A DNA stretch of 5,977 nucleotides from assembly GCA_020349865.1 (NCBI GenBank), contig CP070700.1, forward strand, positions 4,366,956 through 4,372,932, in the 5' to 3' direction. The translations under genes and the position numbers were made by a program. Positions within the stretch are counted from its first letter, which is position 1; every line of letters begins with the position of its first letter. The notes under the pieces were generated by a model. It saw only the letters and a program-made list of their open reading frames with translations, did not search any database and was not told the DNA's origin. This document shows positions 854-5,977 of the stretch, piece after piece. The DNA is from Desulfobacteraceae bacterium (GTDB lineage: Bacteria > Desulfobacterota > DSM-4660 > Desulfatiglandales > Desulfatiglandaceae).

Positions 854-1813
854 ATGCGTTCAAAGGGTGTCAACCCCAGGTTGGGTGAGATCACATGCCT
901 TTATGAGATTACCAAGGCCATTCATGCCACGTTAGACCTGCGAAAGTCTCTTTATAAGGTTCTGGACCTGTTGTCGGAACATCTTGGCATGAACAGGGGC
1001 TCTATTACAATCTTGAACCCTGATACCAGAGAGATACATGTCGAGGTAGCACATGGTATTTCTACTAAGGAAAAAACAAGGGGCCGATACAAATTAGGTG
1101 AAGGGGTTACGGGCCGTGTCATTGAATCCGGGCGTCCCATGGCCGTGCCACACATTGATTCCGAGCCCCTTTTCCTTGATAAAACCAAAGCCAGGAGTCG
1201 GATCGACAAATCGAAAATCTCCTTTACATGTGTCCCCATAAAAGAAGGGCGCAGGGTTATTGGGGCCCTCAGTGTTGACCGCGTCTTTCAAGGCGCGGCG
1301 CCCCTGGATGAGGACATAAGACTCATGACCATCATCAGCACGCTCATCGCCCAGAAGGTAGCCTTGCTTGAGAAAATAAACAGGGAGCAAGATCAACTAA
1401 GGGAGGAAAACATACGGCTGAGAAAGGAACTCAACAAGAAATACAGCTTTTCCAACATCATAGGTAACAGCCACAAAATGCAGGAAGTGTTTTATCTCAT
1501 TATCCAGGTGGCCAAGAGCAATGCCAATGTGCTCTTGTTGGGAGAAAGCGGTACCGGGAAAGAACTGGTGGCCAATGCCATCCATTACAACAGCCTCCGA
1601 CACTCCAAACCATTGGTTAAGGTTAACTGCGCCGCGCTACCAGCTAATCTGGTAGAGGCGGAGCTTTTCGGTTATGAAAAAGGGGCCTTTACCGGGGCCA
1701 ATCGTGAGAAGGCGGGTAAATTCGAATTAGCAAATGGCGGCACCATCTTCCTGGATGAAATTGGCTCTCTTGCTTTGGAAAGTCAGGGAAAACTGCTCAG
1801 GGTCCTTCAGTAA
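854..1813 (+). CDS. N-terminal fragment of NifA-type activator: GAF plus first half of AAA+
   Basis: This is the 319-residue product if translation stops at the internal TAA. It keeps the GAF sensor domain, Walker A, the GAFTGA loop and Walker B, but loses sensor I, the arginine fingers, sensor II and the DNA-binding HTH. Such a fragment could not form a functional ATPase ring or bind enhancer DNA. If stable, it might interfere with intact AAA+ partners. It is listed separately because automatic annotation would call it as its own gene; I regard it as part of the disrupted gene above. Confidence 0.5.
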   Translation: MRSKGVNPRLGEITCLYEITKAIHATLDLRKSLYKVLDLLSEHLGMNRGSITILNPDTREIHVEVAHGISTKEKTRGRYKLGEGVTGRVIESGRPMAVPHIDSEPLFLDKTKARSRIDKSKISFTCVPIKEGRRVIGALSVDRVFQGAAPLDEDIRLMTIISTLIAQKVALLEKINREQDQLREENIRLRKELNKKYSFSNIIGNSHKMQEVFYLIIQVAKSNANVLLLGESGTGKELVANAIHYNSLRHSKPLVKVNCAALPANLVEAELFGYEKGAFTGANREKAGKFELANGGTIFLDEIGSLALESQGKLLRVLQ

Positions 1814-1852
1814 AAAGAGCTTGAACGACTGGGGGGGACGAGTATTATAAGG

Positions 1853-2395
1853 GTGAATATCCGTCTTATAGCAGCAAGCAATCTAGATCTTGCCGGTGCC
1901 GTTGAAGAGGGGATCTTTCGGGAGGATTTGTTTTATCGGCTGAATGTTTACCCTATCTATTTGCCAGCATTAAGGGAAAGAGAAGCGGATCTTCTGCTAC
2001 TGGCCGACTATTTCCTTGAAAAGTATTCCAAAGAATACAGCAAGGAGATTAAAAGGATTTCTACCCCAGCAATTGACGCCTTAACGAGATACCACTGGCC
2101 AGGAAACGTAAGGGAGCTTGAAAATTGCATGGAGAGGGCAGTGCTCCTTTGCGACGATCAGGTTATCCATAGCTACCATTTGCCACCTACGCTCCAAACA
2201 GCGGAGGACACGGGAACTCAGCAGTCGCAATCCTTTGAGGGGGCGGTTGAAAGATTTGAAAAGGAGTTGCTAATTGACGCCCTGAAAAGCAGCAGGGGGA
2301 ATATACGGCAGGCTGCAATGGCACTCAAGACAACAGAACGTATTTTTGGATATAAGGTTAAAAAATACGACATAATTGCAAAGCAGTACCGATAG
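1853..2395 (+). CDS. C-terminal fragment of NifA-type activator: second half of AAA+ plus Fis HTH
   Basis: This is the same reading frame after the stop. It could only be made separately by restarting at GTG 1853, which is simply a Val codon of the full protein ('IIRVNIRLIAASN'). The purine-rich run G1831-G1837 is 15 nt upstream, too far for a good ribosome binding site, so independent translation is doubtful. It contains sensor I 'RLIAASN', the arginine-finger region, 'WPGNVRELEN' and the Fis-type HTH, but no Walker A and no GAFTGA loop. It ends at TAG 2393-2395. An isolated HTH fragment could in principle bind enhancer sites without activating. Confidence 0.4.
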   Translation: MNIRLIAASNLDLAGAVEEGIFREDLFYRLNVYPIYLPALREREADLLLLADYFLEKYSKEYSKEIKRISTPAIDALTRYHWPGNVRELENCMERAVLLCDDQVIHSYHLPPTLQTAEDTGTQQSQSFEGAVERFEKELLIDALKSSRGNIRQAAMALKTTERIFGYKVKKYDIIAKQYR

Positions 2396-2463
2396 TCACT
2401 TGGAATCATTTTTTATCATCTGAAGCAGTTTCAATCTATTGCTGAATTATTTGAAAAAGGGTA

Positions 2464-2492
2464 TTGACAAAATGTTTTATGGAGAGTAATAA
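2464..2492 (+). promoter_or_regulatory. Sigma-70-type promoter of the leader/small ORF
   Basis: A perfect -35 box TTGACA (2464-2469) is followed after 17 nt by TAATAA (2487-2492). An overlapping alternative -10 is AGTAAT (2485-2490) at 15-nt spacing. The -10 is weak but the -35 and spacing are ideal. Transcription would start near 2498-2500, about 15 nt before the small ORF. Confidence 0.55.
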
Positions 2493-2514
2493 AAAAAGTC
2501 TAAAGGAAAAAACT

Positions 2515-2580
2515 ATGTTCGTTACACACATCACAGAAAGGTATTACTTTTATTTTAGCAGGAGGGCCGGGATGCCTTAG
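2515..2580 (+). CDS. 21-residue aromatic-rich leader peptide candidate
   Basis: ATG 2515 to TAG 2578-2580 encodes a 21-residue peptide, too short for usual gene callers. AAAGGA (2502-2507) sits 7 nt upstream of the ATG, a good Shine-Dalgarno placement. Codons 10-14 are Tyr-Tyr-Phe-Tyr-Phe (2542-2556), followed after Ser by tandem AGG-AGG arginine codons. The peptide ends R-A-G-M-P-stop. Runs of one amino-acid class just ahead of an intrinsic terminator are the signature of ribosome-mediated attenuation, as in the Phe-rich pheA leader. Here the promoter, SD, ORF, stems and terminator are in the right order. No convincing antiterminator arm was found, and the downstream gene is not an obvious aromatic biosynthesis gene. 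A free-standing small protein or chance ORF remains possible. Confidence 0.45.
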   Translation: MFVTHITERYYFYFSRRAGMP

Positions 2581-2611
2581 TGTGTGACGACGCAAACATT
2601 TTATGACCAAG

Positions 2612-2640
2612 AAGCGGAGCACATGCTCCGCTTTTTTTTT
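2612..2640 (+). terminator. Strong rho-independent terminator
   Basis: A perfect 9-bp stem AAGCGGAGC (2612-2620)/GCTCCGCTT (2625-2633) with the tetraloop ACAT (2621-2624) runs directly into nine T residues (2632-2640). It lies 31 nt after the small ORF stop and 41 nt before the GNAT start codon. It would end transcripts from the promoter at 2464 and read-through from the NifA-type gene. The GNAT gene would then need read-through or an unseen promoter. Confidence 0.9.
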
Positions 2641-2667
2641 GATTAGTTTTGCAAATGTCTGTCATTA

Positions 2668-2674
2668 AGAGGAG
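2668..2674 (+). promoter_or_regulatory. Ribosome binding site fixing the GNAT gene start
   Basis: AGAGGAG lies 7 nt before ATG 2682. This selects ATG 2682 over in-frame TTG 2649 and ATG 2655 upstream, which have no Shine-Dalgarno and lie immediately behind the terminator T-tract. Confidence 0.8.
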
Positions 2675-2681
2675 ATATAAG

Positions 2682-4277
2682 ATGACGGAGACATCGCGGA
2701 GGAAGGTTTTACCGGGGCGTTCTGTTGCACCAAAAAAACGCCTTGGACTGGATGAAAGACTGGGCCTTATAGGCCTTATCGACGAAGGAATGCGTTTGGG
2801 TTCTCACCACTGCCCTGTTATTTCAGACCTTTTTAACGACCTCTGGGATCTTGTTAGTAAAACGGTGTCTGGGAGCAAAATTGATAGCCTGAAACCTGAA
2901 GACTCCAAGAACGGTTTTCGAGTATTTGAAATAAACGCTGAAACAGGGGAAAATTTAGGCCGTCTCAATATGTCCTACCTGAAAAAACCCATCCCCTGCT
3001 ATTACCTGGTTTATGTTGAGGTGGCTGCGCCTTTTAGAAGAAAAGGGCTGGGAAATCGAATACTGGAGTATTTTCGAGACTTCTTGATCAAAAAATCTGC
3101 CGTCGGGATTCTTGATAATATCATTCCCGAAGATGATTCAACTTACAGTATCTATTTCAAGCAGGGATGGGAACCCGTTGAAGCAATCATCGGGGACAAT
3201 ATCACGGATGCAGACGACAATTACATGATCTACCTTCCACCAAGGTTTCAAGACCAAGATCTACATGAGTCTATTGTAAAGCTGGTATATCACCTGAAAA
3301 GAAAGCGAGCTGAAATAGATATGAGGGACAATGAGGTGATGGTCCAGCGAACCATTGAAGAGTTCAAAGACCTCCACTTAGCGCTCCTTACCTACTTTGA
3401 GCGCGCAATCCAAAAAAACGAGCAAACGCCGCTTATGCGGTTCATGTTCACTCGTTTCGTCACCAAACTTATTGCCTTCAGGCGCCGAATAGGAGATCTC
3501 ATCGGTTATACGGGCGGCGATTCCCTGGAACAGATTGTCCTGACTCCAGAGATAGCAGCACTGCCGGTGCAATCCTATTCCCCTTATGACCTTGCAAGTG
3601 AGCCATCATTGGTGATCGGGAACAGGGATATGTATTTACGTCTTCCTCAGATAATGAAAACTCAACCCGCCCGTAGTATCGAGAGGCTGCCCAACTACAG
3701 GAGGCCAAGCTTCGTTAAATGGATGAAGGAGAGAGGAATCGAAGCGAGCGATACCCTGAATATCGGTGATCTCATGGACCTGGGTTTTGATCCTACGCGT
3801 CTCAAGGAAATCACCATTGGCGGTAGGGAGTTAATATTCGAAAGAATCCAGGCAAGACAAATTCCGGAACTGGAGAGAAAGAAAGAAGTGCTGGACCACT
3901 TAACATCAGGGATGCCTGGTACCAGGGCCAGAAACGCCCAGTTGAGGGTCAATCCTCCATTGCTGGCGATTAGGGACAGAGGAAACGCCTATGTGCTGCG
4001 CCAAAAAGTAAGCGGAATTCACTGGGAAGAAGCTATTGAACAACTCCAGGGCTCTCCTCATTTGAGAAGCCTGAATGCCTCTTTGAAAACTGACAGGATG
4101 GTTTTTAACACCGTAAAAAAGGCCAATGAGATTGTTACAAAGCTCCTAAGCGTTATAGGAGAAGAAACCTTAGTTAGCCTGCTGACCTATTTTATTTCAT
4201 GGGATCTAAAAAGCAATCAGCCGAAGTTGTTGGTTGACTTCACAGGCACTTGCCTGGAATCGGTGTGGGTAGCGTAG
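2682..4277 (+). CDS. GNAT N-acetyltransferase-domain protein with large uncharacterised C-terminal region
   Basis: This is a 531-residue protein from ATG 2682. After a basic, polar N-terminus (1-30) and a helical segment, residues about 75-185 form a GNAT fold. It includes the acetyl-CoA-binding motif A 'VEVAAPFRRKGLGNRIL' (112-128) with R119-x-x-G122-x-G124. The later 'STYSIYFKQGWEPV' (153-166) matches the GNAT motif B pattern of a late aromatic residue before a G-W turn. Residues about 195-245 are helical and charged. The remaining roughly 285 residues contain no motif I recognise; most GNAT enzymes are only 150-200 residues long. No signal peptide or clear membrane segment is seen, so it is probably cytosolic. 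Substrate unknown. It follows the small aromatic ORF and terminator, and ends at TAG 4275-4277 without a clear terminator. GNAT call fairly sure; function open. Confidence 0.8.
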   Translation: MTETSRRKVLPGRSVAPKKRLGLDERLGLIGLIDEGMRLGSHHCPVISDLFNDLWDLVSKTVSGSKIDSLKPEDSKNGFRVFEINAETGENLGRLNMSYLKKPIPCYYLVYVEVAAPFRRKGLGNRILEYFRDFLIKKSAVGILDNIIPEDDSTYSIYFKQGWEPVEAIIGDNITDADDNYMIYLPPRFQDQDLHESIVKLVYHLKRKRAEIDMRDNEVMVQRTIEEFKDLHLALLTYFERAIQKNEQTPLMRFMFTRFVTKLIAFRRRIGDLIGYTGGDSLEQIVLTPEIAALPVQSYSPYDLASEPSLVIGNRDMYLRLPQIMKTQPARSIERLPNYRRPSFVKWMKERGIEASDTLNIGDLMDLGFDPTRLKEITIGGRELIFERIQARQIPELERKKEVLDHLTSGMPGTRARNAQLRVNPPLLAIRDRGNAYVLRQKVSGIHWEEAIEQLQGSPHLRSLNASLKTDRMVFNTVKKANEIVTKLLSVIGEETLVSLLTYFISWDLKSNQPKLLVDFTGTCLESVWVA

Positions 4278-4398: not shown

Positions 4399-4884
4399 AT
4401 GTTAAAAAAGACAAAGAGCGAAAAGGACAGTATGGCGCCCGATTCCAGCCCGGTCTCGGTGGCGGGAATGACAATCATCGGCAAACAGGTTTCCATTGAG
4501 GGGGGCATCCAGGGAGGGGAAGATCTGGTCATCGAGGGTACTGTGAAGGGAAGCATCGAGCTAGAAAAATTCCACCTCACTGTTGGTCCCAAGGGCAAGG
4601 TGGAGGCCGAGATCCACGCTGGCAATGTGACCATCAGCGGCCAGCTGAAAGGCAATATTAAGGCCTTAGACAAGGTAGAGATCACCAAAGACGCTGACTT
4701 CAACGGCGAGATCAAGGCCAGACGCATCTCCGTGGAAGATGGAGCCTACCTCAAGGCAGTGATCGAGGTGGAGCGGGAGCCTCAGAAGAAAGCCGAGCCT
4801 GTGGCCAAGGCGGTCAATTTACAGGCCTCTGGGGCAGGTAAGGAACCAATCCCGTTGATAAGCGAGGCCGAGAAGGGAAAGTGA
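4399..4884 (+). CDS. Bactofilin family polymer-forming cytoskeletal protein
   Basis: This 161-residue protein is of typical bactofilin size. A short charged N-terminal tail (1-22) precedes the bactofilin domain (about 24-125). The domain is a run of short beta-strand repeats with regularly spaced glycines: 'TIIGKQVSIEGGIQGGEDLVIEG', 'GTVKGSIE', 'VGPKGKVEAEIHAGNVTISGQLKGNI' and 'DFNGEIKARRISVEDGAYLKAVIEV'. This is the right-handed beta-helix pattern of the family. A low-complexity Lys/Glu/Ala tail (126-161) follows. Bactofilins assemble nucleotide-independent filaments at the membrane and scaffold cell-shape, stalk, motility or peptidoglycan enzymes. The start is ATG 4399 from the RBS and promoter positions; a longer frame opens at 4330. 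Its stop is 3 nt before the methyltransferase-like gene, so the two are probably co-transcribed and translationally coupled. Confidence 0.92.
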   Translation: MLKKTKSEKDSMAPDSSPVSVAGMTIIGKQVSIEGGIQGGEDLVIEGTVKGSIELEKFHLTVGPKGKVEAEIHAGNVTISGQLKGNIKALDKVEITKDADFNGEIKARRISVEDGAYLKAVIEVEREPQKKAEPVAKAVNLQASGAGKEPIPLISEAEKGK

Positions 4885-4887
4885 TCC

Positions 4888-5502
4888 TTGGCCAACCCTG
4901 TTATCTTGACCGAACGGCCCTGGGAGGCCCCACAATCCGAGTCTGTACCAGTTTTTTATACCAGCAACGTTTTGCGTTTTTTTGCCGAAAATCTTGAGCG
5001 GCGGCGAGAGACGCAGGTCTTGGACATGGGACCTGTCTGCGGAGAGAACATCAGCTTCTTTGCCAGGAGGGTGAAAAGGCTATACGTATGCGACATGTTT
5101 CTCCGCCTGGACCTGGACCGCCGGAAGGGTCTTCCCCCAAGCCTGGCGTGGCGGCATTTGGACTACCCGCCCCAGAGCTTCGACGGTATTCTGCTTTGGG
5201 AACTGGCGGACCGCCTTGAGGACCGCGAAGCGCGAAAGCTCACTGAGCTATGCAGCAGCCTAATGAGGCCTGGTGGCAAGGTGGTAGTGTTCGTCCTTGG
5301 CGAACAGGCGGTCCCACCAGTAGTGAATAGCTTTGTGATTGGGGATGGGTTCCGGGTATACCTGCGATCTCAGCCCCACCTGGACCTCCCAATGCGGGGT
5401 CGTCAGAACCGAGATGTGCTATCCATGATGACCCCCTTCAAACCAGTCAAATCTTTTATTTATCGCAACGGGCTCAGGGAATTTCTTTTCAAGCACGATT
5501 AA
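4888..5502 (+). CDS. Small SAM-dependent methyltransferase-like protein (class I fold)
   Basis: This 204-residue protein starts at TTG 4888. AAGGGA (4873-4878) lies 9 nt upstream, inside the end of the bactofilin gene. No ATG is available before motif I, which supports the TTG start. The Rossmann-like order is visible. Motif I is 'VLDMGPVCGENISFFA' (44-59), with D46-x-G48 but no canonical GxGxG. 'LYVCDM' supplies an acidic residue at strand 2 (D69). 'FDGILLWELADRL' (98-110) corresponds to motif IV, and 'LMRPGGKVVVF' (125-135) to the late motif with its Pro-Gly-Gly turn. The C-terminal 70 residues do not show a known substrate domain. The weakened SAM loop leaves open a non-catalytic role. Coupling to bactofilin suggests envelope- or filament-related work. 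Substrate unknown. Confidence 0.72.
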   Translation: MANPVILTERPWEAPQSESVPVFYTSNVLRFFAENLERRRETQVLDMGPVCGENISFFARRVKRLYVCDMFLRLDLDRRKGLPPSLAWRHLDYPPQSFDGILLWELADRLEDREARKLTELCSSLMRPGGKVVVFVLGEQAVPPVVNSFVIGDGFRVYLRSQPHLDLPMRGRQNRDVLSMMTPFKPVKSFIYRNGLREFLFKHD

Positions 5503-5816: not shown

Positions 5817-5844
5817 TTGACAAATAATATTATGTATATATAAT
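5817..5844 (+). promoter_or_regulatory. Consensus sigma-70 promoter of the XRE regulator
   Basis: Both hexamers match the sigma-70 consensus exactly: TTGACA (5817-5822) and TATAAT (5839-5844), with 16 nt between. Transcription would start near 5851, giving a leader of about 46 nt before TTG 5897. A near-palindrome (5829-5844, 14 of 16 symmetric) overlaps the -10 box, so a bound repressor would block polymerase. Such a strong promoter for a regulator gene usually implies repression. Confidence 0.75.
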
Positions 5845-5896
5845 TATAGACAATTTAAATTAAATATATCGTGATGATTAGATATTGAGAGTTAAA

Positions 5897-5977
5897 TTGG
5901 AACTCAACCTTGTAAAAAAAATCAGAGAAGAGCGCCTCATGAGCAAGGCAGAGCTTGCCCGGAAGGCAGGAGTTTCC
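5897..5977 (+). CDS. XRE-family helix-turn-helix regulator, N-terminal 27 residues
   Basis: The gene runs off the window end; 27 codons are visible. 'LVKKIREERLMSKAELARKAGVS' has the pattern of a Cro/C1-type (XRE) DNA-binding domain: helix 1 'LVKKIREERL', helix 2 'SKAELARKAG' and the start of the recognition helix after 'GVS'. It should be a small cytoplasmic DNA-binding repressor or activator. The start is uncertain. TTG 5897 has GAGAG (5886-5890) upstream, in-frame TTG 5885 would add four residues, and TAG 5879-5881 prevents anything longer. There is no in-frame ATG before the domain. Its promoter carries inverted repeats that look like self-binding sites. Confidence 0.8.
   Translation, partial: MELNLVKKIREERLMSKAELARKAGVS

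What the first reader, a model, noticed from the sequence alone, without database searches (positions are those of the whole stretch)
2464..2681. Possible attenuation system: aromatic-rich 21-codon leader ORF, structured RNA and terminator ahead of a GNAT gene
Seen: a TTGACA promoter, an SD, a 21-codon ORF with five consecutive Tyr/Phe codons (2542-2556), overlapping stems, a 9-bp plus T9 terminator, then the GNAT ORF with its own SD. No good promoter is visible in the 41 nt after the terminator. Known: runs of regulatory codons before an intrinsic terminator characterise transcription attenuation (pheA, trp and his leaders). Inference: expression of the GNAT protein may respond to charged Tyr/Phe tRNA or to ribosome stalling. 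The weak point is the lack of a classic antiterminator. The only competitor I find is AGC(A)GGAG (2557-2564) pairing with CTCCGCT (2627-2633) of the terminator 3' arm. A leader of this kind ahead of a GNAT gene is unfamiliar to me.
Basis: partly seen in the sequence, partly recalled or inferred. Interest (0 to 1): 0.75.

Follow-up and report, generated by a model that had tools for sequence, protein, structure and literature searches.

The report
Phe/Tyr attenuator controlling an acetyltransferase gene
Ahead of a little-known acetyltransferase gene lies a small RNA switch that very probably reads the supply of phenylalanine and tyrosine through a stalling ribosome, and its relatives in related bacteria tie this gene to the making of aromatic amino acids.

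Summary
Observation confirmed; interpretation largely right. Window 2464-2640 looks like a ribosome-mediated transcription attenuator: TTGACA promoter, 21-codon ORF with Tyr-Tyr-Phe-Tyr-Phe, pause hairpin, strong terminator, then the GNAT gene. Of 61 loci with usable upstream DNA (window included), 45 carry an aromatic-run leader ORF plus terminator ahead of the gene, 3 more have the gene inside an aromatic biosynthesis operon, 13 show no clear leader. An automatic rule marks 36 of 60 GNAT-cluster ORFs and 4 of 338 others. Runs vary almost only between Phe and Tyr codons. The missing antiterminator is found: AGUGUGUG (2579-2586), overlapping the stop codon, pairs with CACAUGCU (2620-2627); 20 of 20 group-A sequences keep all 8 pairs. 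Models built on these leaders find further leaders mostly ahead of this GNAT gene, an MBL-GNAT fusion, or shikimate-pathway genes. Shikimate leaders contain Trp codons (20 of 21), GNAT leaders seldom do (4 of 44), pointing to the Phe/Tyr branch. The mechanism is classical; no Rfam family matched, and my literature searches found no report of this target. There are no expression data, folding controls give moderate support, and the GNAT's reaction is unknown.

The parts
2464..2492 (+). Sigma-70-like promoter: -35 TTGACA 2464-2469, -10 TAATAA 2487-2492
   Evidence: by sight; TTGACA (30) or TTGACT (2) with a 16-18-nt spacer within 75 nt upstream of the leader start in 32 of 32 leaders. The window's -10 is weak.
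2502..2507 (+). Shine-Dalgarno AAAGGA of the leader ORF
   Evidence: By sight; 7 nt before the ATG
2515..2580 (+). Leader peptide ORF, 21 codons, MFVTHITERYYFYFSRRAGMP*
   Evidence: ORFs of 19-24 codons in the 32 leaders with a GCGGAG-type terminator (window included; start codons chosen by rule)
2542..2556 (+). Control codons Tyr-Tyr-Phe-Tyr-Phe
   Evidence: in 32 leaders the run holds 91 Phe, 89 Tyr, 2 Cys and 1 Ile codons
2519..2529 (+). 5' arm of pause hairpin P1, inside the ORF; pairs with 2580-2590
   Evidence: 82.9% of cells paired in 20 sequences, 0 of 500 shuffles as high, 17 cells changed on both sides (1 of 500 shuffles as high)
2579..2590 (+). Segment 2: AGUGUGUG 2579-2586 (antiterminator AT1) overlapping the stop codon; 2580-2590 is the 3' arm of P1
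   Evidence: AT1 paired in 160 of 160 cells (20 sequences); variable pair U-G, U-A, C-G, no C-A
2591..2593 (+). AT1 extension CGC pairing GCG 2614-2616
   Evidence: 86.7% of cells paired
2557..2561 (+). AT2: segment just after the control codons that can pair with 2628-2632 of the terminator 3' arm
   Evidence: 2 to 5 of 5 pairs per sequence (4 in the window); supporting element only
2612..2640 (+). Intrinsic terminator, stem 2612-2620/2625-2633 and T9; 2620-2627 is the AT1 partner
   Evidence: GCGGAG..CTCCG in 32 leaders
2668..2674 (+). Shine-Dalgarno of the GNAT gene
   Evidence: By sight
2682..4277 (+). Regulated gene: 531-aa protein with a GNAT fold (about residues 62-213) and a C-terminal part of unknown function

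Best explanation
A classical ribosome-mediated transcription attenuator that senses charged tRNA-Phe and tRNA-Tyr and controls a GNAT acyltransferase gene belonging to the aromatic amino acid regulon. Transcription starts shortly before the leader ORF. If Phe and Tyr are plentiful, the ribosome passes the Tyr/Phe run, reaches the stop codon and covers segment 2 (2579-2590), so the terminator 2612-2640 forms and transcription stops before the gene. If the leader is not translated, segment 2 can be held in the pause hairpin P1 and the terminator forms too. If Phe- or Tyr-tRNA runs short, the ribosome stalls on codons 10-14, covers the 5' arm of P1 and frees segment 2 to pair with terminator nucleotides 2614-2627, which leave the polymerase before the 3' arm is complete; the terminator is delayed or prevented and the GNAT gene is transcribed. 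Shown by sequence comparison: the parts, their conservation and their company. Inferred: the response to starvation and its direction. The likely role of the GNAT protein, inferred from its company, lies in Phe/Tyr metabolism; its reaction is unknown.
For: Leader ORF plus terminator ahead of the gene in 45 of 61 usable loci (sorting partly by eye). Automatic criterion: 36 of 60 GNAT-cluster ORFs against 4 of 338 other ORFs, two of those four being ahead of an aro gene and of trpD. Codons of the run nearly all Phe/Tyr. P1 covaries; AT1 160 of 160 cells paired. Leaders with another terminator have another matching antiterminator (fusion and aro leaders: 95.1% of cells paired, two pairs changed on both sides, 25 of 500 shuffles as high). 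Length-by-length folding with a masked ribosome footprint: with the 3' end 3 nt short of the complete stem, terminator-to-upstream pairs exceed terminator pairs in 30 of 32 stalled, 22 of 32 free and 6 of 32 at-stop leaders; at 2 nt short in 28, 11 and 0. For the window at 3 nt short: stalled 12.4 against 0.0, free 1.2 against 3.9, at stop 1.0 against 3.9. Leaders in GNAT-bearing genomes precede aroK, aroK-aroC and the DeoC-type aldolase gene. Distant orthologues lie in aroC-pheA-GNAT-DUF362-NMO-trpE-trpG (L053) and DHQS II-pheA-GNAT (L046, L052). Trp codons in 20 of 21 aro leaders but 4 of 44 GNAT leaders.
Against: With the complete terminator the equilibrium favours the terminator in every ribosome state for the window and for all 20 group-A leaders; only group-B leaders flip when stalled (5 of 32 below 0.5 at the second stall position), so the switch would have to be kinetic. 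In one search upstream pairing in the stalled state falls to 13 of 32 with the stem complete and 7 of 32 three nt later. Shuffled spacers also give more upstream than terminator pairing in 493 of 640 cases at 3 nt short; observed pairing is stronger (mean 11.0 against 6.3 pairs) but beats all 20 shuffles in only 11 of 32 leaders, and 1 of 20 shuffles reached the window's value. AT1 shows only one-sided changes within group A and the shuffle control does not single it out (107 of 500). 13 of 61 loci show no clear leader. No expression data; the window's own genome is not held.
Confidence: 0.9

Rival explanations
1. The hairpin is only the terminator of the upstream regulator gene (or of a small RNA), and the GNAT gene has its own start downstream; the ORF is incidental.
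For: The complete terminator is favoured at equilibrium in every state for the window, and the window alone cannot show read-through.
Against: No homologue of the upstream genes PilZ was found in the other loci and NifA-like hits lie elsewhere, while leader and terminator stay with the GNAT gene; the Tyr/Phe run is kept with F/Y exchanges; no promoter is listed in 2641-2681.
Confidence: 0.05
2. The leader senses slowed translation in general (antibiotic or nascent-peptide arrest) and not aminoacyl-tRNA supply.
For: Ribosome-mediated attenuators of that sort exist (PMC4191407, title and abstract start in the listing; PMC8632094, passage on hflX).
Against: Residues around the run differ between groups while F and Y replace one another; similar leaders precede aromatic biosynthesis genes and contain Trp codons there.
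Confidence: 0.04
3. The attenuated leader RNA or its peptide also acts in trans as a small regulator (in addition to the cis role).
For: A trans-acting attenuator peptide, peTrpL, is described (abstract start of PMC7298713 in the listing); the terminated leader would be a short structured RNA.
Against: No target was sought here; the conservation is explained by the cis mechanism.
Confidence: 0.05

Closest known systems
E. coli/Salmonella trp, his and pheA attenuators (recalled; passages of PMC1183508)
   Same: Short ORF with a run of control codons, pause hairpin, antiterminator and terminator in mutual exclusion, sensing amino acid supply by ribosome position
   Different: No Rfam family matched; Phe and Tyr codons mixed; in the window's group the antiterminator takes the terminator's loop and upper 3' arm besides three bases of the 5' arm; the target is a GNAT of unknown function and not a known biosynthetic enzyme
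Putative attenuator ahead of the Desulfovibrio vulgaris aroA'-aroB'-pheA-aroF-tyrA-trp supraoperon (PMC1173090, passages and Table 7, taken there from Merino's predictions)
   Same: Predicted attenuator ahead of an aro/phe/trp gene run that begins with two alternative enzymes of aromatic biosynthesis, in a delta-proteobacterium
   Different: That entry concerns the biosynthetic operon and names no GNAT gene ('acetyltransferase' occurs 0 times in its text). Its leader sequence is not in the passages I saw, so homology is untested
uORFC-13-1 motif ahead of aroF in Acholeplasma (PMC8632094, passages)
   Same: uORF with a Phe-coding U run before an apparent intrinsic terminator, ahead of an aromatic gene
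   Different: Other phylum, other gene, no Tyr run described in the passages seen

Membership tests
Ribosome-mediated transcription attenuator | Leader ORF with control codons for particular amino acids | tested here: met
   (translation itself not tested)
Ribosome-mediated transcription attenuator | Intrinsic terminator between leader ORF and structural gene | tested here: met
Ribosome-mediated transcription attenuator | Antiterminator mutually exclusive with the terminator | tested here: met
   (in silico); shuffle controls give moderate support
Ribosome-mediated transcription attenuator | Ribosome stall on control codons frees the antiterminator, ribosome at the stop codon hides it | tested here: inconclusive
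   separates the states for transcripts ending inside the terminator; (complete terminator) does not for group A; one search shows part of the effect in shuffled spacers. Footprint sizes are assumed
Ribosome-mediated transcription attenuator | Read-through rises when the amino acids run short | not testable with these tools
   No expression data
Rfam families (Rfam 15 library) | Match to a curated covariance model | tested here: not met
   0 matches at E <= 1 in the window; 5 matches at E 0.14-0.84 in 8 related loci, all below gathering score and none a leader family
GNAT superfamily (regulated protein) | GNAT fold and acyl-CoA motif | tested here: met
   for residues about 62-213; RRKGLG at residues 119-124 by sight (motif rule recalled); many listed relatives carry PF00583, the window's own protein has no Pfam match
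Known aromatic biosynthesis enzymes | Domain of a known pathway enzyme in the regulated protein | tested here: not met
   Prephenate dehydrogenase and dehydratase domains each occur in 27 of 36 GNAT genomes at E <= 0.001, so the GNAT does not simply stand in for them

The most novel reading that the evidence does not exclude
This 531-aa GNAT family is an unrecognised working part of phenylalanine/tyrosine metabolism in Desulfobacterota, for example an acyltransferase acting on Phe, Tyr, an intermediate of that branch or their aminoacyl-tRNA. It is kept under Phe/Tyr control either by lying in an aro-pheA(-trp) operon or, where it stands alone, by its own attenuator, whose antiterminator has taken at least three different forms while the Phe/Tyr codons stayed.
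Probability: 0.6. Interest if true: 0.65.

Novelty: new member of a known kind. Interest (0 to 1): 0.52.

Why it matters
It assigns a regulatory signal, Phe and Tyr supply, to an uncharacterised GNAT family found in 30 of 395 sampled genomes of the phylum and thereby proposes a pathway for it, which can be tested directly. It also gives a set of leaders in which control-codon make-up follows the pathway (Trp present for the shared shikimate genes, mostly absent for the GNAT) and in which the antiterminator differs between groups while the sensing codons stay, a good case for studying how attenuators evolve.

Tried and rejected
Terminator of the upstream gene: rejected, the upstream genes are not shared between loci. 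Known Rfam element: no match (8 of the related loci searched). The region or gene on plasmids or viruses: no match in the two collections searched. GNAT as a stand-in for prephenate dehydrogenase: not supported, PDH_N matches in 27 of 36 GNAT genomes, 25 over the cut-off (the rest may be gaps of incomplete MAGs). AT2 as the main antiterminator: demoted, 2 to 5 of 5 pairs. Reverse-strand hits of model R1 mirror the terminator stem, and L149, L150, L152 look like plain terminators by eye: discarded. Training sequences are not counted as independent finds. Literature searches found no report of this leader or of this GNAT under attenuation; only open-licence PMC papers were searched, and of the papers found I read passages of four (PMC2965389, PMC8632094, PMC1183508, PMC1173090).

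Full report
What is there. The leader ORF 2515-2580 reads MFVTHITERYYFYFSRRAGMP*, with Tyr-Tyr-Phe-Tyr-Phe at 2542-2556. The terminator (2612-2640) is the only plus-strand site among five terminator-like sites listed and folds at -18.8 kcal/mol, z -6.6. The whole leader folds at z -4.8 with 0 of 200 shuffles as low; without the terminator z is -1.9, 9 of 200.

Is it conserved? The downstream 531-aa protein has 874 relatives at E <= 1e-5 among the 7998 candidates scored (best 120 listed) and 64 loci in GTDB genomes, mostly MAGs titled Deltaproteobacteria, Desulfobacteraceae, Desulfomonile or Syntrophaceae. In a sample of 395 genomes of one phylum, 30 have the protein at E <= 1e-20. A nucleotide search with window 2400-2720 lists 28 of the 64 loci at E <= 1.2e-4 in the part shown; the alignment made from all its hits (limit E 10) holds 33 loci besides the window. 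By leader type over the 64 loci and the window: 4 loci (L004, L009, L063, L064) lack upstream DNA; of the other 61, 20 are group A (the window's type), 12 group B, 6 group C (ahead of a metallo-beta-lactamase-fold/GNAT fusion), 6 group D, and L001 is a group-A leader cut at its 5' end, 45 in all; 3 (L046, L052, L053) have the gene inside an aromatic operon; 13 (L022, L027, L030, L038, L043, L047, L048, L050, L054, L055, L059, L061, L062) show no clear leader, of which L022, L030 and L038 may have remnants. Groups C and D and the 13 were sorted partly by eye. A similar rule applied to 25 loci (several of them the same places) finds a leader with terminator in 16. An automatic rule (9-45-codon ORF, at least 4 aromatic residues in 7, terminator within 150 nt) is met by 36 of 60 GNAT-cluster ORFs and 4 of 338 other ORFs in the loci and window; it misses some leaders because ORF starts were taken too far upstream. 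Of the four controls, one (L046) is ahead of an aro gene and one (L045) ahead of trpD with a Trp-rich leader.

Is the ORF coding? In the 32 leaders with the GCGGAG-type terminator the ORFs have 20-25 codons including the stop; the aromatic run holds 88 TTT, 3 TTC, 66 TAT, 23 TAC and 3 other codons, so change is nearly confined to Phe-Tyr exchange and synonymous change. TTGACA (30) or TTGACT (2) stands within 75 nt upstream in 32 of 32, with 16-18-nt spacing to the best -10.

RNA structure. The pause hairpin P1 (2519-2529/2580-2590) is supported by covariation in group A (82.9% of cells paired, 0 of 500 shuffles as high; 17 cells changed on both sides, 1 of 500 as high). The antiterminator AT1 pairs AGYGUGUG, which overlaps the stop codon, with CACAYGCU of the terminator: 160 of 160 cells in 20 sequences. 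Its changes are one-sided, and the shuffle control does not single it out (107 of 500), so within group A the evidence is constancy and the slide control (96.4% against at most 55.5%, with the 3-pair extension) more than covariation. In group B, 9 of 12 leaders pair UCUUCGCU or GCUGCGCU with the terminator's 5' arm, while L013, L019 and L021 use a GUGUG-type segment. Group C and the aro leaders pair GCCC-type segments with CCGUGGGC (95.1% of cells, two pairs changed on both sides, 25 of 500 shuffles as high). On a quick tree of 58 GNAT proteins the leader types follow kinship (14 changes against 34.0 shuffled).

Does the switch work on paper? With the complete terminator, the terminator is favoured in every state for the window and all 20 group-A leaders; when stalled, 5 of 32 leaders, all group B, fall below 0.5 at the second stall position. 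Folding transcripts that end within the terminator, as they would leave the polymerase, separates the states: upstream pairing exceeds terminator pairing in (stalled / free / at stop, of 32) 30/27/20 at 5 nt short, 30/22/6 at 3 nt short, 28/11/0 at 2 nt short, 13/5/0 with the stem complete, 7/1/0 three nt later. Spacer shuffles show that part of this is generic: 493 of 640 shuffled cases also favour upstream pairing at 3 nt short, though more weakly (6.3 against 11.0 pairs); 11 of 32 leaders beat all 20 shuffles, and 1 of 20 reached the window's value. Footprint sizes are assumptions.

Company. A covariance model of group A (R1), run over 18 genomes reached through loci, matches all 18; in three of them (G003, G009, G017) a match stands ahead of aroK, with aroC next in two (the third contig ends); in G017 it is the only match. 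A second model (R2, from 6 fusion leaders and these 3) matches 21 of 31 genomes, 41 rows. Twenty-nine of the rows were fetched as new loci L110-L138: 21 lie at shikimate-pathway genes (shikimate kinase, chorismate synthase, a DeoC-type aldolase, DHQS II), 7 at GNAT or MBL-GNAT, one ahead of a class I/II aminotransferase; 9 of the 29 are training sequences, leaving 18, 1 and 1. The other 12 rows include one known GNAT leader (L067) and 11 that were not examined. Over 395 genomes of the phylum R1 gives 18 rows in 16 genomes: GNAT leaders in 10 genomes, 2 aro leaders, 1 ahead of an MBL gene, 1 ahead of a CoA-transferase III gene, 3 plain terminators and one reverse-strand echo. That search used strict filters and scored 8 candidates per genome, so it undercounts. 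In distant relatives the gene itself lies in aroC-pheA-GNAT-DUF362-NMO-trpE-trpG (L053), DeoC-type aldolase-DHQS II-pheA-GNAT (L046) and the same followed by trpE, trpG and trpD (L052). L046's gene run has an F/Y/W leader, the genome of L053 has one ahead of its aldolase gene (L128, R2 E 0.002), and the stand-alone GNAT of L057 carries a leader peptide very like that of L046 (by eye). Leaders of shikimate genes contain Trp in 20 of 21 cases, GNAT leaders in 4 of 44 (Fisher p 7e-12, not corrected for kinship; L129, where no aromatic peptide was found, and L135, cut by a contig end, are left out).

Literature. PMC1183508 (passages) describes the mechanism; PMC1173090 (passages and Table 7) lists a predicted attenuator ahead of the D. 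vulgaris aroA'-aroB'-pheA-aroF-tyrA-trp supraoperon; PMC8632094 (passages) has a Phe-run uORF ahead of aroF in Acholeplasma; PMC2965389 (passages) has no occurrence of 'GNAT', 'acetyltransferase' or 'Desulfo' in its main text. None of my nine searches turned up this leader or target.

Verdict. The finding is real, and ribosome-mediated attenuation by Phe and Tyr is by far the best explanation (0.9). As a mechanism it is a new member of a known kind; the interest lies in the regulated gene and in the regulon it points to.

Noticed in passing
window 854-2395: NifA-like sigma-54 regulator gene (GAF, AAA+, HTH_8) broken by an in-frame TAA at 1811-1813 within the AAA+ domain; both halves match Pfam. 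Decayed gene or sequence error.
   Followed up: no
L025, L026, L028-L031, L035: GNAT ORFs of 853-863 aa with a metallo-beta-lactamase-fold domain in front (Pfam run on L025; PF00753 in similar 854-856-aa relatives); in L039 two neighbouring genes. They have Phe/Tyr leaders with a different terminator and antiterminator, except L030, where only a remnant is seen.
   Followed up: partly
L113-L137, L147, L151: Leaders ahead of aroK-aroC and of the DeoC-type aldolase gene often read xxWQ-FYFYF: Trp, Phe and Tyr in one leader ahead of the shared shikimate pathway. G088 and G309 have such leaders but no GNAT match.
   Followed up: partly
L138 (leader about 1501-1638): F/Y-rich leader MVEKSYFSACDFFLFSFFGYFPVRGPD* ahead of a class I/II aminotransferase, perhaps an aromatic one.
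   Followed up: no
L144 (leader about 1501-1632): Phe-rich leader MVNTIRGFFCFFSFRRSTCVT* with the same kind of terminator ahead of a CoA-transferase family III gene; maybe Phe catabolism or a moved leader.
   Followed up: no
L045 5201-6295 (minus strand): Trp-rich short ORF (LFWWWW) with terminator upstream of trpD: a likely trp attenuator.
   Followed up: no
window 5817-5977: Perfect TTGACA-16-TATAAT promoter followed by what reads by eye like the start of a Cro/C1-type HTH regulator at about 5899, cut by the window end.
   Followed up: no
window 4399-5502: Bactofilin and methyltransferase genes follow the GNAT gene here, but blastp found no relatives of them among the ORFs of the other loci, so this neighbourhood is not shared.
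   Followed up: yes
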